Positions 2 through 22,065 of a stretch of 24,055 nucleotides of DNA are shown here, piece by piece. Where the stretch lies: the IMG/VR virus record IMGVR_UViG_3300027730_000147, positions 1-24,055 of that record. One strand, given 5' to 3'. The stretch is from a virus. Every line of letters begins with the position of its first letter. Within the stretch, counting starts at the first letter, position 1. The translations under genes and the position numbers were made by a program. The notes under the pieces were generated by a model. It was not told the origin of the DNA and did not search any database. It saw nothing but the letters and a program-made list of their open reading frames with translations.

Positions 2-622
2 GCACAATTGAAAAGCATGGAGGAAACTATAGGTGTAGTATTACAGGATTATAATTTTCCATTTCCTTCTGATTTACAAAGATTAGTTGATTTATTTTCT
101 TGTAAAGAATCTGTTTTAAGAGGTCAGGCAAATGAATTTTCTTCTAATTATGACAAAAGACAAACATTAAACAATCCAAACTATGGAAGAAATTTAGGTG
201 ATCTTCTTCCAATTGAAACAACCATATTACCAACATCAGGTCAGGTTGTTTTATTTGAAAAGTTTGGACAAGTATATTCAGAAGGAAAATTAACAAATTT
301 CGGAGTTGTAAAAAATAGTTTTTTATCTGGAGGAACCCAAGTGGTTCGATTGAGCGATATTAATACTGATTGGGGTTGGACATTGGTTCTTGGTGATGGA
401 ATAAGCGGAACTGAAGTATCCAGATATTATGAAATTTACAGCTACAAACCTGGCTCAGATGAAATTTTTTATGATAATGTAATAGACTGGGATAGAAAAT
501 TTACAACAATAACAAAAAACCAAAGCTCATATTATTCATGGTTCGGTGATGATCAACTGACCGATAATATGATAAATTATCAACTCTCTGTAGGGTTGGG
601 GATATTAAGTTCAGGTAATTAA
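2..622 (+). CDS. Virion structural protein of unknown role, C-terminal part (5' end outside window)
   Basis: The frame is open from the first complete codon at position 2, and there is no stop between the window edge and the first possible starts (TTG at 8, ATG at 17), so this is most likely the C-terminal end of a longer protein. About 205 residues are visible. The segment is rich in Tyr, Ser, Asn and aromatic residues and looks beta-rich; a WGWTLVLGDG stretch lies near residue 125. It has no signal peptide or membrane segment. I do not recognise a family. It ends 4 bases before the next large structural gene, has the same composition, and is probably co-transcribed with it as part of the tail/adhesin cluster. 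If the ATG at 17 is the true start it would be a complete protein of about 201 aa; nothing resembling a promoter or SD can be seen in the few bases available. Confidence 0.6.
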   Translation, partial: AQLKSMEETIGVVLQDYNFPFPSDLQRLVDLFSCKESVLRGQANEFSSNYDKRQTLNNPNYGRNLGDLLPIETTILPTSGQVVLFEKFGQVYSEGKLTNFGVVKNSFLSGGTQVVRLSDINTDWGWTLVLGDGISGTEVSRYYEIYSYKPGSDEIFYDNVIDWDRKFTTITKNQSSYYSWFGDDQLTDNMINYQLSVGLGILSSGN

Positions 623-626
623 TCTT

Positions 627-3398
627 ATGTCACATTTAGATCAAACATATGTACCAAAAAATTCAGTATTAAATGCTGAAAATACACTGGTTCCTGGTGA
701 TTTTGAAGCGCCATATACACTAATTTCATGGTTAGAAAACATGAATATATTAAGCACAGATTCTTCTGCGTATTTTTTTACATATACACGCTATTTGAAT
801 GCCTGGTTTGACTACAATAAATTTTCAAAAAATAGCACAACTGAATATACACGTATAATTTATATAAATTTATTAAAAGAAATTGCTTTAAAATATTCAA
901 CTTTTGATGAAAAAAGATTTTTAAGTAATCTAAATTTTAACGATAATCAATCATTAGATGTGGCAATACCTTTCTTTTCTAAAAAAATAAAAAGAATATG
1001 TCAATATTATGCTCAAAACAGAGATAAAGTACAAACTGGAGTAATACGTGCTAATTTAAAAGGAAGTAATTTTGGAATTGAAACTCTAATTAAAAAATCA
1101 ATTATCGAAATACTTGAAAATAATGAATTTGAACCTACTGGCATAAATTTACCACCTCTTTCATCAGTTATAAATGATCTGCATGTTCAAATAGAAGAAA
1201 AATTTGACACACAACAATATTATTTTGATATTGTTCCAGATTCTTCATATGCAAAATACGGAATAACAGACCCAGAAAGACAAAAATTTTTTTATTTGGA
1301 TTCTGTAAATGTTAATGATAAAGGATTGTATGATTTAAATGCAGCAATTCAAGATGCAATCCGAGCTTATCCATTATTTCTTAATGAATTGGGAACAACA
1401 AATTTTTCAATAAATTATTTTCTTTCTGGAGTTAATTATGGCTTTTTAGGTTCGAGAGATTTTCAATTATACACGAATGATTCGATTGCAGAACATACAA
1501 ACGTTTACAAATACGGAAAATATTATGAAAAAAATATGGGGTCTGATCTTTATCTATTGTCAGGCACGTCTGATTTTAACACAGTAAGTTCAAAAATATT
1601 AGAATCTGCAACTCCTTATCAAAATTTATTAAACCGTAGATATCCGACAGTTTCTCATATTTCCGAAGAAACATCTGCAAAACGTGAAAAATATCTGGGT
1701 AGGTTTTTCACAAATAATAATCTAGGAATTTCGTATTGGAATACTTTTAAAAAAGAGTTTACAATTTCAAATTCACTTTATTCAAATCAAACAATTGTAA
1801 TACCAGATCCTGAAGTCGGATTTGATGCAATAGGATTATCATTACAGGAACAATCTCTGAGTGGTATTGGATATTTACGTGATGTACAATGGAATCGTTA
1901 CGATTGGTCAAATGATTATGCATTTGGTAGTATATATTCTGATCCAAAAAAACAAAAATTTTATTCCTATACTAACAAAAGCGAATTAGATTATAATACT
2001 GATGAAGGTGTTTCTAGAATAAGCGATTATCAGGATTTTTGGAATGAGCAACTGATATGGAGAAATAAGGATATTTTTGATTTTAAAAATGATGATTTTT
2101 ACCCTGTAATTGATAGATCTGATTATCTTTTATACAATCAAGGATTATTGATAAAACACAAAACAGATATTTTCGGAAACCATTTTGGTTTCTTTAAGAA
2201 TTCTTCAAAAAGGACATATGAACAAACATCACTATCAGCATATCCATCAGAAACTATTATCAATAATTCTTCCATAGAACCTTTATCTTCATTTTATGAT
2301 ACAGAAAACTATCAAAAAGGAACTGTGTTTATACGTTATTATGATGATTCAAATATAGTTTCTTTAAGTGCAGCCCTAAGTGCGGTGTTTATAAAGTACC
2401 CAGAAAATGTTAGAAATGAAATGCAAAATTCAATTATTAATTTTGATTTAATTTTCAACACAATAATAATAGAAACTCCAAAATATATAATTTTTGATAA
2501 ATTAAATTTTGATTTTCAAACTAAAATTTTCGATTCAAACTATGTTAAAACCACATATTTTACAAAATATACATCTTCATCTGCTTTGGAAAACAGTTCT
2601 AATTTTTGGTATGATGAAGAATATAAAAACATTATCGTTTCATTTTTAACACTTTTCAACGAGAATTCATCTTCAAATAATAAGATTTTATATCCTAGAA
2701 TATATGCAGCAAATATTCATGATTTGGATTTTGATTTGCTTTTCCCAACAGTTGCTGATTACAATACTTTAAGCTCATTTGCATTTGATTTGGGTTCTGA
2801 ATCATTTAATGCCATCACTTGTGATAAAAGTATTTTAAATTATAATCATGAATCACAAGTTTTGGGTCAAATTATAAAATGTTATGACAAAACAGGTGTT
2901 TCGTTACTTTTAAATTATAGATTAATAAGATCTTTTAATGATCTTAAATTGGATAATGTAATAGCTTTTAAGCCGTGCGGATTCATTTATGACAAAAATT
3001 ATTCTGATATAACAAACGATCAAACTGTTCGTCATACTGGATTAGAAACAGGAATTGCTGGTTCCCAGCCATATTTTTCAAGTTTTATTGCATCAAATAT
3101 TTCATATGCCGGTTATAATTATTATTATGTTTCAACTGGTTCATTGAGTATAGCTCCTAATGTTTCTGCATTTGTTTTTTGTGATAATACGGTATCCAAT
3201 ACATTTGATGTAAGCATTGATGTGTATAATTTAAATCTAAGAGATGTTTATGGTACTTTGGTTTATGATTTTTCCGGACCAAATGAACATTATTTCACAA
3301 CTATTAACGAATCAATAACTGCACAATTTGGTTCTTCAATTTATTCATTCACATATGTTGCCAGTGGACAACATGTATTAAAAACCGAACTCACATGA
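627..3398 (+). CDS. Large virion structural protein (923 aa), unknown family
   Basis: A 923-residue protein without signal peptide or membrane helix. The N-terminal ~200 residues look helical and include the stretch SLDVAIPFFSKKIKRIC near residue 109, followed by YYAQNRDK. This kind of segment reads as an assembly or attachment region rather than a receptor domain. From about residue 250 on, the protein is beta-rich and full of Tyr, Asn, Ser and Asp. The last ~60 residues (YDFSGPNEHYF, then alternating strands ending SGQHVLKTEL) have the look of a small Ig/PKD-like beta domain, which is inference only. The start is 4 bases after the preceding stop, without a strong SD, so translation is probably coupled. 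It is the first complete gene of a run of similar large structural proteins ending at 12069 and is likely a tail or baseplate-associated component. No enzyme motif is visible. Confidence 0.65.
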   Translation: MSHLDQTYVPKNSVLNAENTLVPGDFEAPYTLISWLENMNILSTDSSAYFFTYTRYLNAWFDYNKFSKNSTTEYTRIIYINLLKEIALKYSTFDEKRFLSNLNFNDNQSLDVAIPFFSKKIKRICQYYAQNRDKVQTGVIRANLKGSNFGIETLIKKSIIEILENNEFEPTGINLPPLSSVINDLHVQIEEKFDTQQYYFDIVPDSSYAKYGITDPERQKFFYLDSVNVNDKGLYDLNAAIQDAIRAYPLFLNELGTTNFSINYFLSGVNYGFLGSRDFQLYTNDSIAEHTNVYKYGKYYEKNMGSDLYLLSGTSDFNTVSSKILESATPYQNLLNRRYPTVSHISEETSAKREKYLGRFFTNNNLGISYWNTFKKEFTISNSLYSNQTIVIPDPEVGFDAIGLSLQEQSLSGIGYLRDVQWNRYDWSNDYAFGSIYSDPKKQKFYSYTNKSELDYNTDEGVSRISDYQDFWNEQLIWRNKDIFDFKNDDFYPVIDRSDYLLYNQGLLIKHKTDIFGNHFGFFKNSSKRTYEQTSLSAYPSETIINNSSIEPLSSFYDTENYQKGTVFIRYYDDSNIVSLSAALSAVFIKYPENVRNEMQNSIINFDLIFNTIIIETPKYIIFDKLNFDFQTKIFDSNYVKTTYFTKYTSSSALENSSNFWYDEEYKNIIVSFLTLFNENSSSNNKILYPRIYAANIHDLDFDLLFPTVADYNTLSSFAFDLGSESFNAITCDKSILNYNHESQVLGQIIKCYDKTGVSLLLNYRLIRSFNDLKLDNVIAFKPCGFIYDKNYSDITNDQTVRHTGLETGIAGSQPYFSSFIASNISYAGYNYYYVSTGSLSIAPNVSAFVFCDNTVSNTFDVSIDVYNLNLRDVYGTLVYDFSGPNEHYFTTINESITAQFGSSIYSFTYVASGQHVLKTELT

Positions 3399-3426: not shown

Positions 3427-5391
3427 ATGCAATTCTCAAGAATATACAACGAAAAACCTTTTGATAGTCGGCATGATATTGCCGTATCTATGGTTTTTTC
3501 AATGTTTAATCCGTCCGGTGCATGTTCAGGAGGATTGACGGTTGCATTTTACGAGGATTCTTTAATTTCACCTTTTGGAGGAGGAATTGCTGGATCATTG
3601 GGATATGCTCCTTATACAAATCCTTCTTTGGGTTTGTCATATGAAGGTCTTGGAGGTGCACATGTTGGAGTTGGTTTGGATATTACTGGTGAGTTCTCTA
3701 AAAGAGGAAATGGAAGAACTACCGGTGATTTTAAAATTAATCCTAATACAATTGTATTTCGTGATTCACAATCAAATAATTATAATTTTTTAAGCTATTC
3801 TGAAAATTTAACAAATTTTGATATTAATTTAGGACAGAATTCAACATCAGAATCAAATGCAAAAGATATATCAATACGAATAATTTTAAGTGAACAGGGA
3901 CGAAAAATTAAAGTTCAAAAAATTATTAATCAAGATGAATATGTTACTATAGCTGAACAATCGTTTTTAGAACAAAAAGAAACTGCTTATCGAGTTGTTT
4001 GTACTTTTGTTTCTCCGGATAATACAACAAAATGTAAAATTAAACAATTTAATGTTTATGGTTTTTCAAATGATTTTGCTTTGAATAGAGACGCTGAAAT
4101 AGATTCAAGTCTTCCAATTTGTTATCAAGATATTAAAAAGGTCCCTTTTAATACAGGTCAAAGCAGAAAAATATTTTTAGGATCAAATAATTTATTTGTT
4201 GAAGAAACAAATAATCTTAATTTTTCAAATTATATTCTAACAAGATCAGAAACAGTTCCATACGATTATCGTCAAACAATCAATTACGAACCAGTCACAT
4301 CACCACTTACAACTTCTGAAATTTTTCAGAATACTGATAATAACAATATTTTAATCACAAAAAATACAAATAATAGCAATCTTAGCATTTATAGAAATTT
4401 AGGACGAAGAATTGTTAAAGAATATTCAATAACAAATGATAGTTCTCCTGGTTTTGGAAATAGTTCTAGTATAGATGGAAATCTTTTGTTTGTTTCAACT
4501 GTTTCTGCAGTAAAAATGTATAAAAGAAGTGGATACGATTGGAATTACACATCTACAGTTCAAAATTTAAGTTCACAACAACCATATAACATAAGTTTCA
4601 AAAATAATAACGGCATTGTATCTTATTATGATGGTTCAGTTCAAATATTCGAAAATGATGGATATGACAATTATTCAAGCGTGTATTTCTTGTCTGCTAT
4701 CGGTTCCACATCTGAAGGATTTGGAAATTGCATAGATATTTCTGAAAATTTTGCTGTTGTTGGTGCACCTTATAAGGATTCATATTATACTGACGAAGGT
4801 GCTGTATACGTTTTTTCTAAAACTGCATCTTGGAATTTTACTGAAATTCTTTCGGGTGGTGAAATACCTGAAGCATATTTTGGAAATAGTGTATCACTAT
4901 TTGGTGGTGTTTTGGCAGTTGGAGTTCCCAGAAAATCAGTAGCATTAAATGCCAGAGCAGGTGTTGTTAACATTTATGATTTGGGTACAACCGGATCTTC
5001 AATTCTTAGAAGCACATATACTCCGATTAAGTTGGCTCCAAATGTATATATGGGAACAGAAGTTCATTTAAAAAATTCAATTTTAGCTGCCCGTACATAT
5101 GATAGTGTTGCAGTTTTCAGTTTAAGTTGCTCTCCAATTTTTATTCCTCCAAGCATAGTACCTCCTTGTGCCATTCAATTGATTTCCAATATAACATTTG
5201 GTTTTATAAAGAAAATAGACCAGACCGGATATGTTTTAACAATACAATGTCCTAAACCACCTCTTACACCTTTAAGTTCACTTTGTGCATTGGTAACTAT
5301 TCTAACAGGTTATCCAATTTATTCCGTAAATGGCTTCGATGTATTGAGCCCAATTTTCTGTCCTATTACGGGAATTAACATAGGATTTTAA
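3427..5391 (+). CDS. Lectin-like plus FG-GAP beta-propeller virion adhesin (654 aa)
   Basis: The protein has two recognisable parts. Residues ~15-215 resemble an L-type (legume-like) lectin/concanavalin-A sandwich: GGLTVAFYED (35-44), a glycine-rich GGGIAGSLGYA loop (51-61) and HVGVGLDITGEF (79-90), the usual order of core strands in bacterial lectin domains. From ~335 to ~570 there are FG-GAP repeats as in integrin alpha chains and related propellers: PGFGNSSSIDGNLLFVS (~339), EGFGNCIDISENFAVVGAP (~430) followed by GAVYVFSK, and YFGNSVSLFGGVLAVGVP (~484) followed by GVVNIYDLG, plus a weaker unit near 542. The last ~80 residues are Pro/Cys-rich (PPC, CPKPP, FCP). Both folds commonly bind carbohydrate or protein ligands, so a role in host attachment or virion decoration is inferred. 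It has no signal peptide. It is followed after 2 bases by the next gene, so the two are probably translated from one mRNA. Confidence 0.7.
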   Translation: MQFSRIYNEKPFDSRHDIAVSMVFSMFNPSGACSGGLTVAFYEDSLISPFGGGIAGSLGYAPYTNPSLGLSYEGLGGAHVGVGLDITGEFSKRGNGRTTGDFKINPNTIVFRDSQSNNYNFLSYSENLTNFDINLGQNSTSESNAKDISIRIILSEQGRKIKVQKIINQDEYVTIAEQSFLEQKETAYRVVCTFVSPDNTTKCKIKQFNVYGFSNDFALNRDAEIDSSLPICYQDIKKVPFNTGQSRKIFLGSNNLFVEETNNLNFSNYILTRSETVPYDYRQTINYEPVTSPLTTSEIFQNTDNNNILITKNTNNSNLSIYRNLGRRIVKEYSITNDSSPGFGNSSSIDGNLLFVSTVSAVKMYKRSGYDWNYTSTVQNLSSQQPYNISFKNNNGIVSYYDGSVQIFENDGYDNYSSVYFLSAIGSTSEGFGNCIDISENFAVVGAPYKDSYYTDEGAVYVFSKTASWNFTEILSGGEIPEAYFGNSVSLFGGVLAVGVPRKSVALNARAGVVNIYDLGTTGSSILRSTYTPIKLAPNVYMGTEVHLKNSILAARTYDSVAVFSLSCSPIFIPPSIVPPCAIQLISNITFGFIKKIDQTGYVLTIQCPKPPLTPLSSLCALVTILTGYPIYSVNGFDVLSPIFCPITGINIGF

Positions 5392-5393
5392 TT

Positions 5394-6116
5394 ATGAATT
5401 ATAATACGGCAATCATATATCTAACAGCGAATGAAAACTTCATATCATTTTCAACAATTGATGGGTATGTTTATAATGATCCTTTATTAGGTTATTCATT
5501 TACATATAATAATATATTAAGTTCTGCAACATTTTTAGGTCTCAGTGGTTCTCCTGCTTTGTCTGCATTACCATTATCTGCCTATACCAACACCTCCACA
5601 TTTTTATCATCAAACAATATTGTTGTTCGAAGACATGAGTTTAATGAGTTTATATTCACAGGACCAGTTATTATAAATTATTCTTTAAAAAATGTACAAC
5701 AAAGTTTATATAAAATAGAAAAAATAATAGGATACTTAAATGGTAATATTATTGAAAATAATATTGATCTTTTAAATTCGTCGTCTTTTTTAAACGGCAT
5801 AACCGCCACTTATGAAACACCTCCTGAATTTTCAAAAACCTATAATGAATCAATAAGCTGTTACCGAGAAAATTTTTATGTGGATGTTTTTGATATAACA
5901 TTCAGAATCAACCAACCCAGTCTTTTTGATATAACTGCAAAATATAAAATAATAAATTATCAAATATTGGATGATAACCATTCATATCTTTTAACTCTTC
6001 AGGGTTATGAGGATAGAAACATTCATTATGCCGTTTTAGGTACAGATTCAACAATTTTTGTATCACCATCTTCAATTGCCCGAACTTACCCCAACCTTAA
6101 TTTTTTAATATCATAA
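5394..6116 (+). CDS. Virion-associated protein of unknown function (240 aa)
   Basis: A 240-residue protein beginning 2 bases after the preceding stop. An AGGA about nine bases upstream of the ATG may act as a weak SD. The first 80 residues are rich in Ser, Thr, Leu and Tyr. The middle (NYSLKNVQQSLYKIEKIIGYLNG, here split as NYSLKNVQQS and LYKIEKIIGYLNG) could form a short helix, and the C-terminal half is predicted by eye to be beta strands. It has no membrane segment, cysteine cluster or enzyme motif. Its position between the FG-GAP adhesin and the LamG-domain protein, in the same tight transcription unit, makes a structural, chaperone or connector role in the adhesion apparatus plausible. 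I do not recognise the family. Confidence 0.55.
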   Translation: MNYNTAIIYLTANENFISFSTIDGYVYNDPLLGYSFTYNNILSSATFLGLSGSPALSALPLSAYTNTSTFLSSNNIVVRRHEFNEFIFTGPVIINYSLKNVQQSLYKIEKIIGYLNGNIIENNIDLLNSSSFLNGITATYETPPEFSKTYNESISCYRENFYVDVFDITFRINQPSLFDITAKYKIINYQILDDNHSYLLTLQGYEDRNIHYAVLGTDSTIFVSPSSIARTYPNLNFLIS

Positions 6117-6150
6117 AGCATGTAACCCCAACACTTTAATAAGTATTTTT

Positions 6151-9100
6151 ATGATTGTAAAAGAATTTAACACAAATAACTGGTCTGAATTGGATCCTCA
6201 ATATCAACCAGATATGGATTTTGTTACAAAAAAACAAAAAGTTTATTCTGATTCTTGCTTGGTTTTTTCGTTTCCACAGTTTTTAAAAAGCAATTATGAT
6301 CAAAAAACAAATAATTTTTCAACTTTAGCACTTACATCTTCACTTCAAATAAGCGATGCTTTTCAGATTGATACACCGGAATCGATTGGAAATGGATTTG
6401 TAACTGTAATAAGTAACGGAATAGACTCAATAACTAACACAGCCCAAAGATACTGGTTGGCAATTCCTTCTTCTTCAAAAAAATATCTTGAAATAGATAC
6501 AAATAATTCGTTTGGAGAAAAAAATCCCGATTTTTATTTTGAAATAGATTTTTTAAACGACAACACATGTAGGGTATCGCATAATTATTATAATATAAAA
6601 TATTATTTAAATTTTAATCTGCTTTCTAATCAAGTTGTTTTTCTTTCAGCCGACAATGACATATTTTCTCCAAATACTTTGGAAAAGCAAAAATTTGAAT
6701 ATATTTTTGATCAAGCCAATAAACTTATTGCATTCTTTTATAGAAAAAATAATAACGTTTATACTTTAACAAAAATTGCATCTTCCCTTTCTTTTAGTCC
6801 GCTCACTGGTTCAAATATACAATTCACAGAGAATAATGTTTTTAATTTACATCCCATAAAATTTACCTTGCTAGATTCAGTTTCTTCATTTTGGTTTGAA
6901 TATACTAAACAATATGATACAAACAATTTAAATGTTAATTGCTCTGTGACTGAAAAAGATTCCAACCAGTTGGTTTTTCATACTGAATATAACAACATAA
7001 ACTCGGTCGAAATGCCTTTTAATATTATCAATCAAAAAACTTCTTTAACACCATCTTCAAATAATATATCTTCTGCCGATAATAAGAAACAAAGAAATTA
7101 TGTTTCTTTGAATACAGGTTCAAATCAACAAACAGGAAATATTAAATTTTCAACAAATTATCAAAGTAGTATAAATGAATATTCATTCTTACCTGGAAAA
7201 ATAACATATTTTCATACACCCGTGCAAATGGGTCCTCATCAAATGATCAATATCAATGATACAAATCTTGTTGAATCTGGTTCTATTTTTTCAAATACTC
7301 CTGAATTTTCCGACAAAGTTTGGAAAAAAATGTCCAATTACAGTTTAACATCCAAGTTCGGAGATCCTTTAGGTGAAGTAAACGGAACATGGCTATGTTC
7401 CTGGTTGAGCGGTTCGTCTGATCCGAATATTTTGCCAGTATGGTATGATCGGTATTTTATTCCTAACAAAACAACACGTGAATCGGCATTTTCTGCTTCA
7501 AACGTTTATACATATACTAGTCATTATGATTGTGTTACCAATCAATCTAATTCAAATAATGAAATTTTCGATGTTTTTAGTAATTTGACATTCGATCCAT
7601 ATGCATTGTATGCATATTACAGAACTGGAAAAAATGATATTTTAAATCTTAAAAAGCAAAATGCTAATAATCTTCTTTTTGAACAAATTAATCAATATTT
7701 TGATGTAAAAGGAACAATATTAACAACTGAAAATGGAAATTATTCATTTTTTGGAAATCAATATGGATTATGTGAAACTATAAATAGCAAATCTTTCAAC
7801 AATCAATTCACCATCTTATTTTCTCTGTTTTCAAGAGATTTTTCTGAACCGTTTGGACATCAATTAATAGGAAATTATATAAATAGGGGATTGGGAATTT
7901 ATTCCGACCGATCAGTTACTCCATTTTTAAGAATAATAAAAGATAAAAGTATACTCATTTATGACACAAAAATGAACCAAATTGATCAGGTGGATTTTCA
8001 AAACCAGATCATACAAATTGTTCAATTGGAAAGTTTAGATGATTATTTTGTTTTGGATAATCAAGGTGAATTATTTCAATTAGATTCAAAAAATACAATT
8101 TTTGACAGCACATTTTTTGGACCTCTTTCCACTACCATATCACATGTTTCTGATGATTTTTATACTCACTTTTTAGTTTCATCCGCAGGTGATGTTGTTT
8201 CTTACAATAAAAACACAGAAGATATAACCTACAACACATTCTCCCGAGTATTTTCAGTTTCTCCAATGACAAACGCCGGTGATTTAAAAAAGATAGGAAA
8301 TAATTTATATGTGATAGATGGAAAAAATGCTCAAAAATATGATGAGTACAGAATTTTTTATATTAAAAATGGTGAGATTGTAGAATGGAATATTTCTTCA
8401 AACAACATTGAGACTCGAATGTTTAACAGCAGTGGAACCATTTTAACATATAAATTAGATGAAAATAACAATTTCTATATTTTTGATAACAATTCCACTT
8501 GTTATGTTCACAATTCTGCAGGATTTATTGTAACCACACTTCAAATGCCAATTTCTTCTAGCACGGTTATTGCAAGTGATTATTCAAAAATATATTCGAA
8601 TGGTCAAAAAATTGAAACCGTTTATGCTGTGTGTTCTTCAGCCAATTCAAATTTAGTTGTAGGTATAAATCCTGAAAAAATATCAGTCTTCGATTCCACA
8701 ATTTATTCTTTTGATTATAATTTGTCGGGTGTGAGATATTCCGGCTTTTCTAATTCCAATTACAATAAAGAATTTTTGGATCTGAATTATCCTTCTCATA
8801 CCATTTCTGTTAGATTAGGACTTCCTAATTTATATGCATATAATAGTTTTGATGAAATTAATTTAAAATTTAACGCTACTCAATTGAATTATGGATATCA
8901 TGAATTTGCTTTAAGTGTGGATTCAATCGAAGGTATAGCCAAACTTATAGTAAATGGAAACATCGTCGACACAAAAAACATAAATCCAGGAAAATATACA
9001 TTTAGTAATATTATAACCGAACCTTTGTCATTTGGTTCCACGCAATATTTTGCAGGTACAGAATTGTTTCAAACATTAAATAAAGTACAAAATGCATTTT

Positions 9101-9435
9101 TAGTAGGCAACGTCATGATGCGAGATGTGTTTTTCTTTACAAAATCTTTAAATTATTATGAAATTCGTCTATTACAGAAGCTTTCTAAAGATATAAAACC
9201 TATCAATTTTATTCTTCCTTCAGAAACCAGAAATTATACAGAGACTGTACAACAATTTTTCCGCCAAAGAGTGCCTTATCACAAGTCGCCTTTTGTGGAC
9301 ATATCCATAAATAATTCCAAAATTTTAAATGAACAGGCAAGAAATTATATTCAGGAAAATTTAAATCTAATTCTTATGAATAACCTTCCATATTATACCA
9401 AAATCAGCAATCTTATTTGGAGGGAAAATTTATGA
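6151..9435 (+). CDS. Very large virion protein with propeller-like region and C-terminal LamG-like domain (1094 aa)
   Basis: This is the largest complete protein in the window. Residues ~1-590 are beta-rich without a recognised fold. Residues ~600-860 contain repeated short strands of the type DYFVLDNQGELFQLDS, HFLVSSAGDVVSYNKN and NLYVIDGKNAQKYD, which read like blades of a degenerate beta-propeller. Residues ~860-1025 match a LamG/concanavalin-type module: YHEFALSVDSIEGIAKLIVNG (start ~917) is the standard core of LamG_3-type domains, followed by VGNVMMRDVFFFTKSLNYYEI, equivalent to the usual 'I-D-D-V-x-I-Y-N-R-x-L' end. The last ~70 residues are more charged and may be an attachment tail. 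LamG modules often bind glycans, so a receptor-binding or decoration role is inferred. The stop overlaps the next ATG as ATGA, indicating translational coupling. Upstream is only a weak TTAATAAG element. Confidence 0.65.
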   Translation: MIVKEFNTNNWSELDPQYQPDMDFVTKKQKVYSDSCLVFSFPQFLKSNYDQKTNNFSTLALTSSLQISDAFQIDTPESIGNGFVTVISNGIDSITNTAQRYWLAIPSSSKKYLEIDTNNSFGEKNPDFYFEIDFLNDNTCRVSHNYYNIKYYLNFNLLSNQVVFLSADNDIFSPNTLEKQKFEYIFDQANKLIAFFYRKNNNVYTLTKIASSLSFSPLTGSNIQFTENNVFNLHPIKFTLLDSVSSFWFEYTKQYDTNNLNVNCSVTEKDSNQLVFHTEYNNINSVEMPFNIINQKTSLTPSSNNISSADNKKQRNYVSLNTGSNQQTGNIKFSTNYQSSINEYSFLPGKITYFHTPVQMGPHQMININDTNLVESGSIFSNTPEFSDKVWKKMSNYSLTSKFGDPLGEVNGTWLCSWLSGSSDPNILPVWYDRYFIPNKTTRESAFSASNVYTYTSHYDCVTNQSNSNNEIFDVFSNLTFDPYALYAYYRTGKNDILNLKKQNANNLLFEQINQYFDVKGTILTTENGNYSFFGNQYGLCETINSKSFNNQFTILFSLFSRDFSEPFGHQLIGNYINRGLGIYSDRSVTPFLRIIKDKSILIYDTKMNQIDQVDFQNQIIQIVQLESLDDYFVLDNQGELFQLDSKNTIFDSTFFGPLSTTISHVSDDFYTHFLVSSAGDVVSYNKNTEDITYNTFSRVFSVSPMTNAGDLKKIGNNLYVIDGKNAQKYDEYRIFYIKNGEIVEWNISSNNIETRMFNSSGTILTYKLDENNNFYIFDNNSTCYVHNSAGFIVTTLQMPISSSTVIASDYSKIYSNGQKIETVYAVCSSANSNLVVGINPEKISVFDSTIYSFDYNLSGVRYSGFSNSNYNKEFLDLNYPSHTISVRLGLPNLYAYNSFDEINLKFNATQLNYGYHEFALSVDSIEGIAKLIVNGNIVDTKNINPGKYTFSNIITEPLSFGSTQYFAGTELFQTLNKVQNAFLVGNVMMRDVFFFTKSLNYYEIRLLQKLSKDIKPINFILPSETRNYTETVQQFFRQRVPYHKSPFVDISINNSKILNEQARNYIQENLNLILMNNLPYYTKISNLIWRENL
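9419..9424 (+). promoter_or_regulatory. Strong Shine-Dalgarno that fixes the start at 9432
   Basis: GGAGGG lies 7 bases before the ATG at 9432, inside the end of the preceding gene. It supports ATG 9432 over the in-frame TTG at 9417, and the resulting ATGA stop/start overlap is typical of coupled genes. Confidence 0.75.
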
Positions 9436-11186
9436 TTTCCATATCCAAATCATTTGATGAAAGTCCTTTTTTGTTTGATCGTGTCACAGGCGATTTCATA
9501 AAATTACCTTATGATTTTTCCAAAATACAAATCCCTGTAAACGAATTAGCAGTATCTGGTGCCATTAATTTAAAACTAGATTATTTCTTTGAAAATTTGA
9601 TTTACCTATATTCTCAAAGCAAACTTTTAACAAATCAAATTCCTTATCAATTTTCAAGCTGGCTAGGTGTTGTTTCCGGTAAAAATAATGTGTCATGGAA
9701 CCAAAATACAATTCCGAATACAAGTGCCGCACCATTTGCCAACGCAGGTCTTTCTGCTTTGGATTTTCTTCAAGATTTAGTTACAATAAAAACTGAAAAT
9801 GATGAAATTTTGTTCATAGGAACTCAAGGTCAACAAATCGTTTATGCAGTTACAGATCAAAATTATTCATCATTCACAGTAATTTTATCATCTCCATACA
9901 TTGATGAATTTACCCAACTTAGAAACGGTAATGTAACAGATTTAATAGTGGATGGATACAATCTATATTCAATCGATTATACCAATAACAATGTTATTCT
10001 TTACGATATTGAAGGATTTATTGGTGGTGAAAATATAAAAAAGAATAAACGTTACATCAGAAAAATTATTGGTGGTCAAGGAGGAAGATACGATAACGGT
10101 GCGTTTAGAAATCCATTTGCTGCAGATTTTTATAATTCAACTCTTGTTGTTATGGACAGTGGAAATGCATGTTTGAAATTTTATGATTCAGATTTGAATT
10201 GGCGTTATTCCCTGGTCGTGAATCGAATTTTTAGAAATTATGAAATTGTAGATATAAAACTTCATAAAAATAAACTAACAGGAAATACGGATATTTTCAT
10301 GTTGTCCAAGAATAATAAAATAATAATTTTAAAAATTATGGATTCATCATTTGATGTTATAGATTTTTCACAAGAAACAACAACAGGAGAAATTGGTGTT
10401 AAATTTGTTTTTAGTAAAAACAACACAAACATTTTTTATATTCTCACAAACAAATCAATTTATAAAAAATTCTTTACACGTCCTGAAACAAGAATTGGAA
10501 AATTTGATTTGCAAAGAGATGGTGTTAAAAATTATGATTTAAAAGCTCTTGATATTATTCTAGAAAATGAAAATGATACGTTATTTTCATTTTCAAGAAC
10601 GTCATTATCTCCCATACTGTCCTGTGGACAATTTTTAAAGTTTATCGAACCTAATTTTACAAATAATATGTTATATTCATATGATTTTGACATTTATAAA
10701 AAAGATCAAATTCATATTAAAGATGAAGAATACTCACAGGCTCTTACGTTTAACAAATCAATTATTAAATTGATAAACAATAATTACATTCTTTTAAATG
10801 AAGCTAGAGAAAGATTTAAGTTTGATTTGGATCCTTATCTTCCATTATCGGCAGTTGATATTCAAATGACAAACAACGACATTTATCAAAGTTATAAATT
10901 TGTAAGAAATATCTATATAGATGATTCGGTTTTGAATGATCAGAATTTAGCAATAAATTGTAATAATTTTATTGGAAATAATGAGAATTTCCAAAGTGAC
11001 GTTATAAATCGCTGCCTGTATAGGATATATTTGCAACAATTAGCTCTTTTAAACATATTCCAGGGGGATACACCATTACCGTTACCTTTGTTCCTTTTGA
11101 ATTGTAATATTATTACAATAGCAAATGCCGACCTTATGCAAGGAGTTGGGGATGGTGCATTTTTAATCAGCATATTGTGCAATTGA
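9432..11186 (+). CDS. Virion protein with NHL-type beta-propeller (584 aa)
   Basis: I place the start at ATG 9432 because of the GGAGGG SD and the ATGA overlap with the preceding stop. Residues ~110-310 read as a beta-propeller: the segment at 214-252 has the NHL signature order (GGQGGRYDNGAFRNPFA, then ADFYNSTLVVMDSGN, then ACLKFYD), and neighbouring units TDLIVDGYNLYSIDYTNNNV and DIFMLSKNNKIIILKI look like further blades. Residues ~310-480 are mixed. The C-terminal ~100 residues (SIIKLINNNYILLNEARERF onward) are more helical and may be a multimerisation or attachment region. NHL propellers usually bind proteins, nucleic acids or glycans. Here, next to lectin, FG-GAP and LamG proteins, a tail-associated adhesion or structural function is inferred. 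No catalytic residues can be assigned. Confidence 0.65.
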   Translation: MISISKSFDESPFLFDRVTGDFIKLPYDFSKIQIPVNELAVSGAINLKLDYFFENLIYLYSQSKLLTNQIPYQFSSWLGVVSGKNNVSWNQNTIPNTSAAPFANAGLSALDFLQDLVTIKTENDEILFIGTQGQQIVYAVTDQNYSSFTVILSSPYIDEFTQLRNGNVTDLIVDGYNLYSIDYTNNNVILYDIEGFIGGENIKKNKRYIRKIIGGQGGRYDNGAFRNPFAADFYNSTLVVMDSGNACLKFYDSDLNWRYSLVVNRIFRNYEIVDIKLHKNKLTGNTDIFMLSKNNKIIILKIMDSSFDVIDFSQETTTGEIGVKFVFSKNNTNIFYILTNKSIYKKFFTRPETRIGKFDLQRDGVKNYDLKALDIILENENDTLFSFSRTSLSPILSCGQFLKFIEPNFTNNMLYSYDFDIYKKDQIHIKDEEYSQALTFNKSIIKLINNNYILLNEARERFKFDLDPYLPLSAVDIQMTNNDIYQSYKFVRNIYIDDSVLNDQNLAINCNNFIGNNENFQSDVINRCLYRIYLQQLALLNIFQGDTPLPLPLFLLNCNIITIANADLMQGVGDGAFLISILCN

Positions 11187-11202: not shown

Positions 11203-12069
11203 ATGGCCGGAAATTACCCTTTTCATGGAAAACTGCACAGATCAACACACCATACTGATCCCACAGCTGGCGTATTAGAAAGTGGCACAGATCCTGTTGC
11301 TGCACCATCAGCACCGTTTAAAGGAATTTTCCATACGGTTTTAGAAGGTAATAGTTATCAATGGTATAATGCTTATACATATCTTAAAACAAATAGTGCC
11401 AATTTTGCTCGTTTAGATACAGACAACATTTTTCAGAAAAATATAACAATTTTAGGAAGTTTAACTGCACTTGGCAATTCCGTATTTAGGAATACTATAT
11501 TCACAACCACAAGTGCTCTTAGTGTAATCAATAATGGAATAGGACCTGCACTTTATGTTGCACAAGCTCCAGGAATTTATGATATTGCCAGTTTCTATGA
11601 TTTGGATGGAATCGAAGTTCTTCACGTGGGAAATGGTCTTACAACAGCATCTCTTGGAAAAGTAGGCATAAACACAAGTTTTCCCACAGTTGAATTTACA
11701 GTAAACGGAGCAATCAGTTCCAACGATACAATAACTGTTCAGGGCGGAAACAGCAATCAATGGAACAGTGTTTACAATACAACAAAATCAACTAGTGGTA
11801 ATTGGAATCTTGGATATGATGCATATACAAATTTAATAAACAATAGTTCAGCTTATCTTTCAGGGGGTGTCGCATCAGCAATTGCATTTACTCCGATTAC
11901 AAACACAGATTATTTTTCAGCAAGAATAGAACCATTACAGCTTCTTGCAACAACAGTACAAAGTGCAATTTCTGCTTTGAATGAACGTATCAATACAATT
12001 TATGCATTATTGGAAGGTCTAACCGCAAACAAAGGAACCGTTTTTGTTTCCATAAGCAGCACACTATGA
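11203..12069 (+). CDS. Tail-fibre-like virion protein (288 aa)
   Basis: The N-terminus has a His/Thr-rich segment (HRSTHHTDPTAG near residue 12), an attachment-type start. A fibre-like body follows with low-complexity beta repeats, including ITILGSLTALGNSVFRN and NNGIGPALYVAQAPGIYDIA, then LHVGNG and GKVGINTSFPTVEFTVNGAIS. The series 'shared allele/GPALYV/GxVGI.T..P...F.VNG' is what phage fibres and trimeric shaft proteins commonly look like. A QWNSVYNTTKSTSGNWN stretch follows at about residue 187, and the C-terminus (ARIEPLQLLATTVQSAISAL onward) looks like a coiled coil suited to trimerisation. The assignment is by pattern, not by a specific family. The stop overlaps the neck-protein ATG as ATGA. 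It may be a whisker/fibritin-like or short fibre component near the neck, given the neighbour. Confidence 0.6.
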   Translation: MAGNYPFHGKLHRSTHHTDPTAGVLESGTDPVAAPSAPFKGIFHTVLEGNSYQWYNAYTYLKTNSANFARLDTDNIFQKNITILGSLTALGNSVFRNTIFTTTSALSVINNGIGPALYVAQAPGIYDIASFYDLDGIEVLHVGNGLTTASLGKVGINTSFPTVEFTVNGAISSNDTITVQGGNSNQWNSVYNTTKSTSGNWNLGYDAYTNLINNSSAYLSGGVASAIAFTPITNTDYFSARIEPLQLLATTVQSAISALNERINTIYALLEGLTANKGTVFVSISSTL

Positions 12070-17052: not shown

Positions 17053-18999
17053 ATGAAAAATTTAAATGAAATTCTTAATACTAAAAGCTATACAAGCATT
17101 AGACGTTATCAACATATATGTAATATGATAGATGAAAGAATTGAAAATTTAGGAAAAGATAAAAACAAAACATTAAAAGAAAAGATTTATATATTAAAAA
17201 ACAATATAACCAAAGATCCTGTTTGTAAAATTTGCAATAAAACGGTAAAATATAGTGTAACAAAAGATAGATATTTGAAATATTGTTCAGCAATATGCAG
17301 TAATGCTTGTCCAGAGGTTAGAAATAAAAAAATACAAACAAATATTGAAAAATATGGTGTGGATAATCCTCAAAAGAACAAAGAAATAAAAGAAAAGAGT
17401 AAAAAAACATGCTTAAAAAAATATGGAGTCGAAAATCCTCTTTTGCTTTTAAAAAATAATTTGACTAAAACTTATGAAGAAAAATTTGGGAAAGAAAGAA
17501 AAAAACAAATCATAGAAAAAAGAAAAAAAACCTGTTTACAAAAATACGGAGTTGAATATGGAACACAATCACAACAAGCCATAGATAAAAGAAAAAAAAC
17601 CAATTTAGAAAAATACGGAACAATTGCACCTGCGGGAAATACAGAAATAAAAAAGAAAATTCAAAAAACTAATTTAAAAAAATATGGTTTTATAACCCCT
17701 TTGCTTGGAAAAGAAATAAGAGAAAAAAATAGTTTACCGTATGAACAAAGATATCTTGAAAGAAGCGAACAAATCAAACAAAACAGAAAAAATTCATTTT
17801 TGAAAAAATTTGGAGTAGAAAATCCTTTTGCAAATGATTCTATAAAAGAAAAAATAAAACAAACTCTTTTAGAAAAATATGGTGTTGAAAATATTTCCAA
17901 AACAGAATATGTAAAACAAATTCATAAAAAACGGTACTATGATAAATTATTTTTATTAAATCAAATAAAACCAAATTTTTCTATGCAAGAGTATGGTGGA
18001 GAAAAATATAAAATATATTCGTGGCAATGCACAAAAACAGAAAAAACATTTGAAGCATATTATGCGAACGGTTTGGTTCCTGTTTGTCCATGTTGTCATA
18101 CTAATGAAGGAACAAACATAGAAAATTTTGTAATTTCATTTCTAAAGAAGAATAATATCGAATATCAATTTAGGAATAGATTAATTCTTGAAAATAGATC
18201 AGAATTAGATTTTTATATTCCTTCCCATCATCTTGCAATAGAAGTACATGGCTTATACTGGCACACAGAAAGAAAAATAATAAATCGTGGAAAAAATCCT
18301 CGTCTTTATCATTTAGAAAAATTGGAAAATAGTCAGAAAAAAAATATTCGTTTGATTCAAATATTTTCAGATGAAATATTAAATCATCCAAGAATAGTAG
18401 AAAGCCGATTAAAAACAATTCTAGGTATTAAAAAAAGAACAATAGGTGCCCGTGAGTGTGAAATTCAAATAGTTGATTATAAAATGAAACAAAAATTTCT
18501 TGAAAAATATCATTTACAAGGAAATGATAGAAGTTCCATTTGTTTGGGTCTTTTTTATAAAAAACATTTGGTAAGTATGATGACTTTTGCCAAACCAAGA
18601 TTAGTAATGGGTCATAAAAATGTGCCTGAAGGTAGTTATGAGTTACTTCGTTTTTGCAGTAATTTTCATTTTTCGATTGCTGGAGGTGCTGGAAAACTTT
18701 TGAATTACTTTAAACAAAATTATTCATGGAACAAAATTATAACCTATGCCGACAGAAGATGGTCTATTGGAAATCTCTATAAAAAATTAGGATTTGAATT
18801 TAGTCATAATAGTAATCCTAACTATTTTTATACAAAAAATTACATGATTAGAGAATATAGGTACAAATATAACAAAAGTTTTTTAGTTAAAAAATATCCT
18901 GAATTGTGTGAATATAGTGAAAGAATAATTATGGATAGCTTGGGTTATGAAAGAATATATGATTGTGGTCATTCCAGTTTTATTTGTATTAAAAACTAA
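17053..18999 (+). CDS. Homing-endonuclease-like protein with tandem KYGVENP repeats and Vsr-like nuclease domain (648 aa)
   Basis: The protein is modular. N-terminal Cys58-x2-Cys61-x16-Cys78-x3-Cys82 forms a zinc finger. Residues ~96-300 hold about eight copies of a (K/T)NLEKYGVENP-type repeat followed by charged helices, a DNA-binding repeat seen in phage and giant-virus homing-type nucleases (DUF7487/NUMOD-like). A second zinc ribbon includes Cys326 and CPCCH at 345-349. Residues ~355-455 are a Vsr/EDxHD-like nuclease: Asp386 (ELDFYIP), Glu397 (IEVHGLYWHTE), His404, His420 and Asp440-Glu441 (IFSDE). Residues ~470-610 (LVSMMTFAKPR, YELLRFCSN, GGAGKLLNYF, TYADRRWSIGNLYKKLGFEF) look like the GNAT-related C-terminal module of these proteins. 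It probably spreads by cutting related genomes near the capsid gene. The Lys-rich, very AT-rich composition contrasts with the capsid gene. No frameshift is seen. Confidence 0.8.
   Translation: MKNLNEILNTKSYTSIRRYQHICNMIDERIENLGKDKNKTLKEKIYILKNNITKDPVCKICNKTVKYSVTKDRYLKYCSAICSNACPEVRNKKIQTNIEKYGVDNPQKNKEIKEKSKKTCLKKYGVENPLLLLKNNLTKTYEEKFGKERKKQIIEKRKKTCLQKYGVEYGTQSQQAIDKRKKTNLEKYGTIAPAGNTEIKKKIQKTNLKKYGFITPLLGKEIREKNSLPYEQRYLERSEQIKQNRKNSFLKKFGVENPFANDSIKEKIKQTLLEKYGVENISKTEYVKQIHKKRYYDKLFLLNQIKPNFSMQEYGGEKYKIYSWQCTKTEKTFEAYYANGLVPVCPCCHTNEGTNIENFVISFLKKNNIEYQFRNRLILENRSELDFYIPSHHLAIEVHGLYWHTERKIINRGKNPRLYHLEKLENSQKKNIRLIQIFSDEILNHPRIVESRLKTILGIKKRTIGARECEIQIVDYKMKQKFLEKYHLQGNDRSSICLGLFYKKHLVSMMTFAKPRLVMGHKNVPEGSYELLRFCSNFHFSIAGGAGKLLNYFKQNYSWNKIITYADRRWSIGNLYKKLGFEFSHNSNPNYFYTKNYMIREYRYKYNKSFLVKKYPELCEYSERIIMDSLGYERIYDCGHSSFICIKN
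17338..17940 (+). repeat. About eight degenerate in-frame repeats encoding K-x-x-L-x-K-Y-G-V-E-N-P
   Basis: Units begin around TNIEKYGVDNP, TCLKKYGVENP, TYEEKFGKER (degenerate), TCLQKYGVEYG, TNLEKYGTIAP, TNLKKYGFITP, SFLKKFGVENP and TLLEKYGVEN. Spacing varies from roughly 20 to 40 residues. They are protein-level repeats, not a nucleotide satellite. Confidence 0.8.
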
Positions 19000-20355: not shown

Positions 20356-22065
20356 ATGGCAAATGAAATATCTTCAGCATTATTGTCAAAATTGGCACCA
20401 GAAATGAATTTGCAATTATTGCAAAAAGTAACTTCCACTCCCAATTTTGATCAAACATCCCAACAAATAAGCCAATTAAATCCTGAAAATTTAACAGCTT
20501 TGGTTCAACAAGTTCCGGCTGCTTTTGGTTTTACAAGTATTTTGGATAGTATTCCAACGCTTCCTTCAAGCAAAATATTAAACGGCCAAGTAAATCAAAT
20601 AACCCAAGGTATTGATATTGTTAATCAATTTTTAGGTGCTGTAAATTCAATTCAGGGCAACATACAAATTCCGGATTTTGCCGGAGGTGGTGTAAACATT
20701 GATTCTATTTTCGAAAATACTTTCAATCAATTAGCACAAAGATCTTCTTCCGTGTTTTCATCATCTCAATCGCAAGTTGGTTCAATATTTCAAACTTCTC
20801 AAAATGTTTCAAACATAAGTTCTGTTTTAAATTCCATTCAAACTTCGCTTCCTTCTAATATATCTCCAAAACAAATTAGGGATTTAAATGCTTCTCCACA
20901 AAATATTAATAATTTTATTAATACAACTACACAAAAAGCCAATTCGAACGTTCAAACTCAGGCAATAAATAATGCTCAAACTTACACAAACAATGCTGCT
21001 GGAGCAAATACTACTCAGGCACAATCATCCCCAATTGTTCCAAATGCATCCTCTGGTGAAGATTTTAAAATAAAAGCTGTTGTTACCACATATGGCAAAG
21101 GAGAAAAGGTAGGAAGTGGAGGAGACAAATGGACAGCTCGAGGTGATAGCTCAACAGGACAAGGAAACCTTGTGGAAGGAATTAGTTGTGCAGTGGATCC
21201 TTCAATCATTCCTTATGGATCAAAAATAGTTTTTGAGGATCCTCGACTGGGAACACGTGTTGCCATGGATACAGGTTCAGCTGTGGTTTCTCAACAAGCA
21301 GCCCGATCCAGGGGAATATCATTGGGTAATGAAAATAATACTCCATTACCTTATGAAGCAGGCAGCGGGGCAGCATCAACCGATCAAACTGTAAGAACAG
21401 GTGGCAGAGGTTCAAAATTATCAGGAAATCTGCTTCTTAAAGATACTGATGGTACACTTTTAGGAAAATATAAATTTGTGAATGGCGGTGCCGGAAGAGG
21501 GAATATTCCTTTTGGCACATATACAGTGTCTAATTATATGACTGCGCAACAACGTCAGCAAGCAGGCAGAAGTCAAAGAGGTTCTTTAAGAGGTCAGGAT
21601 ACATTTGATCTTAATGATGTGTACGATCCTGTTTATAGTGATACACGTTCTGGTTTATTGATTCATCCTGCAGCAAATGCAACAGAAGGATGCATAGGAA
21701 TTCAAGAAAATTGGTCAGATTTTCGTGAAAAAATGAAATATCTCATGTCTAAAAATGGAGGAAAATATAAAATTGAATTTGGTCCAGATACAGAAACAGT
21801 AAATAATCGCAATCCTGAAAGGGTAGTTACAATTGATGTTTATTTCGAAACAGAAAAGTCCCGTCAAGCTTTTGAAAAAGTGATACAACAGATAAGTGGA
21901 GGAGGAACTGTTGCAGCCACAGTTCAACCTCCAAGAAACGGTGTAATTGGAAGAAATGTTCGTTCTCCTTCTGGAAGAACAACAGTAGCATATTATCCAA
22001 AAGGATATGAACGTTTTAAAAACCCTAGCAGCGAACAACTGCTTAAAGCTGCAGGATTAATATAA
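20356..22065 (+). CDS. Tail-associated cell-wall enzyme with 3D (RlpA-like) and L,D-transpeptidase-like domains (569 aa)
   Basis: Residues 1-235 are Gln/Asn/Ser-rich and contain repeated coil-like helices, suggesting an elongated attachment region. Residues ~236-320 match the 3D/RlpA double-psi barrel of lytic transglycosylase-like proteins: FKIKAVVTTYGKG, ISCAVDPSIIPYGSKIVFED (Asp281) and VAMDTGSAV (Asp305). Residues ~345-475 carry an L,D-transpeptidase-like active-site motif, IHPAANATEGCIGI, with His437 and Cys446. The preceding GGAGRGNIPFGTYTVSNY is the expected N-terminal part of such a fold. The C-terminal ~80 residues hold FETEKSRQAFEKVIQQI. The gene ends in a one-base TAATG overlap with the baseplate hub, which points to a tail-tip wall-cutting partner of the hub. 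The third Asp of 3D domains and full catalytic capacity cannot be confirmed. Confidence 0.7.
   Translation: MANEISSALLSKLAPEMNLQLLQKVTSTPNFDQTSQQISQLNPENLTALVQQVPAAFGFTSILDSIPTLPSSKILNGQVNQITQGIDIVNQFLGAVNSIQGNIQIPDFAGGGVNIDSIFENTFNQLAQRSSSVFSSSQSQVGSIFQTSQNVSNISSVLNSIQTSLPSNISPKQIRDLNASPQNINNFINTTTQKANSNVQTQAINNAQTYTNNAAGANTTQAQSSPIVPNASSGEDFKIKAVVTTYGKGEKVGSGGDKWTARGDSSTGQGNLVEGISCAVDPSIIPYGSKIVFEDPRLGTRVAMDTGSAVVSQQAARSRGISLGNENNTPLPYEAGSGAASTDQTVRTGGRGSKLSGNLLLKDTDGTLLGKYKFVNGGAGRGNIPFGTYTVSNYMTAQQRQQAGRSQRGSLRGQDTFDLNDVYDPVYSDTRSGLLIHPAANATEGCIGIQENWSDFREKMKYLMSKNGGKYKIEFGPDTETVNNRNPERVVTIDVYFETEKSRQAFEKVIQQISGGGTVAATVQPPRNGVIGRNVRSPSGRTTVAYYPKGYERFKNPSSEQLLKAAGLI

What the first reader, a model, noticed from the sequence alone, without database searches (positions are those of the whole stretch)
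3427..11186. Adhesin cassette with lectin, FG-GAP, LamG and NHL folds in neighbouring virion genes
Within 8 kb there are a legume-lectin-like plus FG-GAP protein, a propeller-like/LamG protein and an NHL-propeller protein. These are folds more familiar from cell-surface and eukaryotic-style adhesion proteins. They are adjacent, partly coupled (ATGA at 9432-9435) and share composition. Together with the two unknown proteins upstream they could form a multi-part glycan or surface recognition apparatus larger than a simple fibre set. This is the strongest candidate here for an undescribed system.
Basis: partly seen in the sequence, partly recalled or inferred. Interest (0 to 1): 0.75.

Follow-up and report, generated by a model that had tools for sequence, protein, structure and literature searches.

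The report
Propeller-rich baseplate genes of uncultured phages
Part of the landing gear (baseplate) of an uncultured T4-like virus of bacteria is encoded by large sugar-binding-type and propeller-shaped proteins that occupy the place where phage T4 keeps a different, apparently unrelated set, and two of them form a fixed pair that recurs in scores of uncultured phages but was found in none of 50,697 deposited phage records.

Summary
The folds are mostly real. FG-GAP (g2, Pfam 1e-11), LamG and a beta-propeller (g4; Laminin_G_3 in 20 of 48 family members, AlphaFold pLDDT 81) and NHL (g5; NHL in 26 of 53 members, TRIM3-NHL profile hit 5e-17) are confirmed at family level. The legume-lectin call for g2 is only suggestive (E 0.04). 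The genes are not a loose adhesin set. They sit inside the T4-type baseplate operon, in the order gp25-gp6-g0-g1-g2-g3-g4-g5-g6-gp13, where T4 has gp7-gp12 and wac. By profile comparison g0-g6 match none of those proteins, while the gp6 and gp13 anchors do match. g4 is followed directly by g5 in 77 of 77 testable distinct cases. Eleven longer contigs keep gp6, g1 and g4 in order on one strand. What varies is the slot between g1 and g4: lectin/FG-GAP genes here, glycosyltransferase and methyltransferase genes in sister lineages. The predicted hypervariable lectin tip is not seen within the window's clade. Best reading: a lineage-specific baseplate periphery with a fixed g0-g1 / g4-g5 chassis plus an exchangeable recognition insert. 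Virion presence and binding are inferred, not shown.

The parts
2..622 (+). g0, last 206 aa only (window truncates it); full-length relatives are about 1147 aa with N-terminal PKD and a central NHL/Vgb-lyase-like propeller
627..3398 (+). g1, 923 aa, no known family; follows gp6 and g0 in relatives and stays in order with gp6 in larger contigs
3427..5391 (+). g2, 654 aa: lectin-like domain + FG-GAP propeller + Cys-containing C-terminal module; lies in the variable slot between g1 and g4
3442..4065 (+). lectin-like domain of g2 (mobile module, 20-64% identical in 33 other sampled sequences; L-type lectin fold suggested, not proven)
4702..4815 (+). best FG-GAP_2 repeat stretch of g2
   Evidence: E 1.2e-11
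5394..6116 (+). g3, 240 aa, unknown; the ORF just upstream of g4 in most lineages, part of longer proteins in some relatives
6151..9435 (+). g4, 1094 aa, family found in 266 IMG/VR stretches
7861..8637 (+). beta-propeller of g4 (residues about 571-829)
8752..9186 (+). LamG (Laminin_G_3, concanavalin A-like) domain of g4, residues 868-1012
9432..9435 (+). ATGA: start of g5 overlaps stop of g4
9432..11186 (+). g5, 584 aa from the ATG (589 from TTG 9417): NHL propeller protein, always directly downstream of g4
9924..10736 (+). NHL-type propeller region of g5 (approximate borders)
11203..12069 (+). g6, 288 aa, fibre-like protein just upstream of the gp13-like gene (position of T4 wac); relatives range from 199 to about 1400 aa
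12066..13082 (+). g7, gp13-like head-tail adaptor (Ad2), right-hand anchor of the synteny

Best explanation
The region is the periphery of a T4-type baseplate, built from proteins with no detectable relation to those of T4. SHOWN: g0-g6 lie between gp25-gp6 on one side and gp13 on the other, where T4 has gp7-gp12 and wac. g4 (unknown N-terminal part, propeller, LamG, conserved C-terminus) and g5 (NHL propeller) are a fixed, start/stop-coupled gene pair in many uncultured T4-like phages. g1 also keeps its order with gp6 and g4. The g1-g4 interval is an exchangeable slot that holds the lectin-like+FG-GAP protein (g2) and g3 here and glycosyltransferase/methyltransferase genes in sister lineages. 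INFERRED: the g0/g1 and g4/g5 products form the outer wedge, doing the job of T4 gp7-gp12 (holding fibres, sensing attachment, passing on the contraction signal). The lectin-like, LamG and PKD domains and the propellers touch glycans on the host surface, with g2 as the lineage-specific recognition part and g6 as a short fibre or whisker.
For: Gene order gp25-gp6-g0-g1-g2-g3-g4-g5-g6-g7 in L091 with PHROG baseplate-wedge hits for gp25 (2e-16) and gp6 (1e-41). T4 order gp6-gp7-gp8-gp9-gp10-gp11-gp12-wac-gp13. Profile comparison: gp6 matches T4 gp6 (98%, 7e-14) and g7 matches T4 gp13 (97.5%), but g0, g1, g3, g4, g5, g6 and the lectin domain have no match above 3% to T4 gp6-gp13 or to the tested P-SSM2 and S-PM2 proteins of the same interval. 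The g1 profile finds nothing in the whole T4 and P-SSM2 genomes, where the gp6 profile does match. g4 is followed by g5 in 77 of 77 distinct cases, mostly overlapping or abutting. In 11 larger contigs gp6, g1 and g4 run in that order on one strand, with about 0.6-15 kb between g1 and g4. A T4-type MCP is in 13 of the 20 g4-bearing records tested. Fold evidence. Slot content by clade on a g4 tree and glycosyltransferase/methyltransferase families in it. g0-g5 diverge faster than head genes: 51-77% against 78-93% identity between the window and relatives.
Against: No proteomics or structure shows these proteins in particles. The T4 and cyanophage targets were single sequences, so remote homology of g0, g1 or g4 to gp7, gp8 or gp10 is not excluded. 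The lectin fold is not significant. No binding residue or ligand was tested. The contigs are metagenomic and many are fragments.
Confidence: 0.62

Rival explanations
1. Pure architecture: g4-g5 (and g0-g1) are structural wedge parts only. Propellers and LamG serve as protein-protein docking folds, and host recognition is done elsewhere by tail fibres.
For: The g4-g5 pair is universal, nearly always single copy and of similar size at 22-29% identity. The most conserved part of g4 is residues 361-420, not the propeller or LamG. Tail-fibre-like genes follow g5 in sister lineages.
Against: Four different families typical of binding proteins (FG-GAP, LamG, NHL, PKD) in one operon, plus a mobile lectin-like module and, in relatives, a P-domain.
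Confidence: 0.2
2. One reading: g0-g5 as a whole are one multi-part glycan-recognition apparatus, an undescribed adhesion system added to a normal baseplate.
For: Several lectin/propeller-type proteins in one operon.
Against: They occupy the gp7-wac interval, with no gp7-gp12 homologue seen between gp6 and gp13, so they appear to replace baseplate parts and not to be added to them. No tip hypervariability within the clade.
Confidence: 0.1
3. An ordinary, merely diverged T4 baseplate: g1, g4 and others are gp7, gp8, gp10 homologues beyond sequence detection, with extra domains, as cyanophage gp7 has grown.
For: Identical position and gene order; gp7 of P-SSM2 is annotated as one CDS of about 15.6 kb (75005-90592), so expansion of wedge proteins is known.
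Against: Profiles of 15-55 sequences find nothing while gp6 and gp13 controls do; the best PDB hits of the g4 model are propeller proteins, with no T4 baseplate chain among the 50 listed.
Confidence: 0.08

Closest known systems
T4 baseplate wedge/periphery genes gp7-gp12 and wac (Straboviridae)
   Same: Same place between gp6 and gp13, same strand, similar number and size of genes; in T4 the pins and fibres at this place mediate attachment and trigger contraction (PMC3004832)
   Different: No detectable sequence relation of g0-g6 to any of them; propeller, LamG, PKD and FG-GAP domains instead of the gp10/gp11/gp12 fold
Cyanophage (P-SSM2, S-PM2) gp6-gp13 interval
   Same: T4-like order with very large, lineage-specific virion proteins in this interval
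   Different: No profile match to g0-g6 among the proteins tested
phi11 Gp45 receptor-binding protein
   Same: A propeller in a phage baseplate protein with a proposed sugar pocket (PMC4901313)
   Different: Five-bladed, trimeric, siphophage, different gene context; no homology tested beyond fold class
NHL-repeat (TRIM2/TRIM3), Laminin_G_3, FG-GAP_2, PKD families
   Same: g5, g4, g2 and g0 carry these domains
   Different: The rest of each protein has no known relative; the BFVD structure library holds one full-length g4 relative, an unnamed protein of an uncultured phage
Moraphages (aquatic jumbo phages, PMC12619734) and Lak phages
   Same: Large uncultured T4-related phages, Bacteroidota hosts predicted, several core glycosyltransferases; a TAG-recoded g4-g5 copy lies in a contig of a Bacteroidota MAG
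   Different: Membership not tested; lectin and propeller do not occur in the text of that paper; Lak-A1 gives no g4 or g5 match by profile

Membership tests
T4-type baseplate periphery (gp7-gp12, wac) | genes between gp6 and gp13 in the late tail operon | tested here: met
T4-type baseplate periphery (gp7-gp12, wac) | homology to gp7, gp8, gp9, gp10, gp11, gp12 or wac | tested here: not met
   with gp6 and gp13 as positive controls; targets were single sequences
T4-type baseplate periphery (gp7-gp12, wac) | present in the virion at the baseplate rim | not testable with these tools
   no proteomics or cryo-EM
FG-GAP_2 (PF14312), g2 | score over Pfam cut-off | tested here: met
   45 bits, cut-off 23
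NHL repeat proteins, g5 | NHL repeats by Pfam and by profile against solved NHL domains | tested here: met
   (family level; the window copy alone does not match Pfam NHL)
Laminin_G_3, g4 | LamG domain | tested here: met
   20 of 48 relatives, best 7.7e-8 (family level; window copy alone not)
L-type (legume) lectin, g2 N-terminus | significant match to lectin family or fold | tested here: inconclusive
Moraphages | place in their MCP/terminase phylogeny and shared core groups | not tested
   their sequences were not at hand; paper read

The most novel reading that the evidence does not exclude
A distinct class of contractile-tail baseplate, spread through uncultured T4-like phages, in which the whole gp7-gp12 layer is replaced by extracellular-matrix-like propeller/LamG/lectin proteins. 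The g1-g4 slot switches between self-encoded adhesins and a sugar-building gene set that glycosylates those baseplate proteins, so that a phage either reads host glycans with a lectin or dresses its own landing gear in glycans.
Probability: 0.15. Interest if true: 0.85.

Novelty: new variant of a known kind. Interest (0 to 1): 0.58.

Why it matters
T4 is the reference for how a contractile tail senses its host. If a large uncultured group keeps gp25, gp6 and gp13 but uses a different, propeller-rich periphery, the parts list of the sensing layer is not fixed and can be compared across lineages. The fixed g4-g5 pair is a simple marker for these phages in metagenomes. Glycan-building genes in the same slot make virion glycosylation at the baseplate a testable idea.

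Tried and rejected
Hypervariable adhesin tips: rejected within the clade. Recently acquired foreign island: rejected; GC3 of g0-g5 is like that of gp6 in the same genome, and the block is syntenic in relatives at about 50-97% identity. A relation of g0-g6 to T4 or cyanophage proteins: none found. g4 in deposited phages: none with four diverse queries plus a TAG-recoded one; g5 none; lectin module none; g2 only one weak hit. Lak-A1 as carrier: no match, though without a positive control in that record. The first g4 model with 13 sequences was poor (pLDDT 39) and was replaced by one with 55. A PDB profile search with the full g4 alignment gave only chance hits. Pfam scan of lectin and g1 consensus sequences: nothing. 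A wider lectin scan failed because the alignment is too diverse. g4 in 393 genomes of the MAG's order: only the MAG itself clearly. No RNA family in the window. Promoter-like sites were near the number expected by chance; terminator-like sites exceeded shuffles (15 against 7.7), the strongest being on the - strand after the MCP gene.
Full report
WHAT THE WINDOW IS. The window is a 24,055-base virus record. It holds T4-type head genes: gp13-like adaptor (g7), gp4-like head completion (g8), protease (g9), a weak scaffold match (g10) and a gp23 major capsid protein (g11), plus a baseplate hub gene at the right end. Among 50,697 deposited phage records the top-ranked capsid match is about 34% identical and no record reaches 60%, so this phage is far from isolates.

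CHECKING THE FOLDS. g2 (3427-5391) has FG-GAP_2 repeats (E 1.2e-11). Its first 210 residues form a separate module that occurs in many protein contexts in relatives: alone, within proteins of 1343-1607 aa, or in front of FG-GAP or P-domain parts. A 34-member profile of this module has a legume lectin as its best PDB hit, but only at E 0.04, and Pfam finds nothing consistent. I therefore call it lectin-like, not a lectin. g4 (6151-9435) gave an AlphaFold model of mean pLDDT 81 from 55 homologues. Residues about 570-830 are a propeller; the PDB list is filled with WD40 and other propellers. Residues 868-1012 are LamG: 20 of 48 relatives match Laminin_G_3, best 7.7e-8. g5 is an NHL protein: 26 of 53 relatives match Pfam NHL, and the profile hits TRIM3 and TRIM2 NHL domains at 5e-17 to 7e-16. 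g0, of which the window holds only the last 206 residues, is about 1147 aa in relatives, with PKD (2e-7) and a Vgb-lyase-like stretch. Its propeller region aligns with that of g5 (67%, E 5e-5). g1 and g3 have no known family.

WHERE THE GENES SIT. Relatives from IMG/VR extend the view. In L091 the order is gp25 (baseplate wedge, 2e-16), gp6 (baseplate wedge, 1e-41), g0, g1, g2, g3, g4, g5, g6, g7 (gp13-like) and so on. T4 has gp6, gp7, gp8, gp9, gp10, gp11, gp12, wac, gp13. The anchors match T4 by profile comparison (gp6 98%, E 7e-14; g7 to gp13 97.5%). g0, g1, g3, g4, g5, g6 and the lectin domain match nothing in T4 or in the tested proteins of cyanophages P-SSM2 and S-PM2 above 3% probability. 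The g1 profile also finds nothing in the whole T4 and P-SSM2 genomes, where the gp6 profile does. So the set takes the place of the T4 baseplate periphery and does not look like an extra cassette. The T4 review states that beyond gp25 and gp6 the ancestry of T4 baseplate proteins cannot be seen in sequence (PMC3004832), so a non-homologous periphery is not contrary to expectation; what is new is which proteins fill it.

A FIXED CHASSIS AND A VARIABLE SLOT. The g4 family was found in 266 IMG/VR stretches, of which 80 loci were kept. Of 78 distinct copies examined, 77 are followed directly by g5 and one runs off its contig. Among 27 larger records, 20 carry g4, nearly always once, and 13 of those 20 also carry a gp23 gene. 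Comparing, eleven records keep gp6, g1 and g4 in that order on one strand. The distance from g1 to g4 varies from about 0.6 kb to about 15 kb. This interval holds g2 and g3 in the window. In sister lineages it holds glycosyltransferases (PF11397 at 9e-72, GT10 fucosyltransferase, a weak GT1 match), FkbM and TylF methyltransferases and HtrL/YibB proteins, and the same families recur upstream of g4 in many loci. On a quick tree of g4 (SH-aLRT supports only), the glycosyltransferase label needs 3-4 changes among the 48 scorable rows and the adjacent lectin+FG-GAP gene needs 2. The content of the slot is thus inherited by clade and replaced now and then. Because clades share ancestry, these numbers do not measure independent events precisely.

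VARIATION. Between the window and relatives, head genes are 78-93% identical and g0-g5 51-77%; gp6, compared between relatives L088 and L091/L094, is 73-74%. Low GC of the block is shared with gp6 in a relative and is no sign of recent import.

DISTRIBUTION AND HOST. No g4 relative appears in the deposited phages with five queries and none of g5 with two. In GTDB genomes one contig of 375,692 bases in a Paludibacteraceae MAG from yak caecum carries g4 and g5 with about ten in-frame TAG codons each and a gp23 gene on the same contig. This looks like a TAG-recoded phage binned with a Bacteroidota genome. It hints at Bacteroidota hosts, as does the published moraphage lineage (PMC12619734), but neither shows the host of the window's phage.

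MECHANISM. Most likely the g0-g1 and g4-g5 products form the outer wedge and g2 is the lineage-specific surface-recognition part, with g6 a short fibre or whisker. The order of genes, the coupling and the conserved pair are shown. Virion presence, geometry, ligand binding and the trigger function are inferred from position and from the domains. The literature searches found no report of NHL repeats in a phage baseplate, within the open-access library only.

VERDICT. Folds mostly confirmed; interpretation corrected from adhesin cassette to a different baseplate periphery with an exchangeable recognition slot. I rate it a new variant of a known kind, with interest 0.58.

Noticed in passing
L112:2371-9267, L115:167-8056, L036:3-2597 and similar loci: Glycosyltransferase, FkbM/TylF methyltransferase and HtrL/YibB genes inside the baseplate operon just upstream of g4 in sister lineages.
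   Followed up: partly
17053-18999: Homing-endonuclease gene directly after the major capsid gene; absent at that place from the close relative L009 (97% MCP identity), so probably a recent insertion.
   Followed up: no
22065-24053: The baseplate hub protein contains two CPxC pairs (CPVC...CPVC), perhaps a metal-binding insert in the hub.
   Followed up: no
20356-22065: A 569-aa protein next to the hub with matches to phage L-alanyl-D-glutamate peptidase and unknown PHROGs; may be a separate tail lysin.
   Followed up: no
L017:7336-7588: A 15-base tandem repeat (15.7 copies) adds a long Gly-Ser tail to g4 right at the g4/g5 junction in one relative.
   Followed up: partly
L173:10001-15833: TAG-recoded g4-g5 pair in a 375-kb contig of a Paludibacteraceae MAG; probably an unrecognised huge phage binned with a bacterium.
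   Followed up: partly
5134-5376 and C-terminus of 294-aa g3 relatives (e.g. L012:4167-4304): The last 80 residues of g2 share a module with the C-terminus of the longer g3 form in sister phages; the window's g3 lacks it.
   Followed up: no
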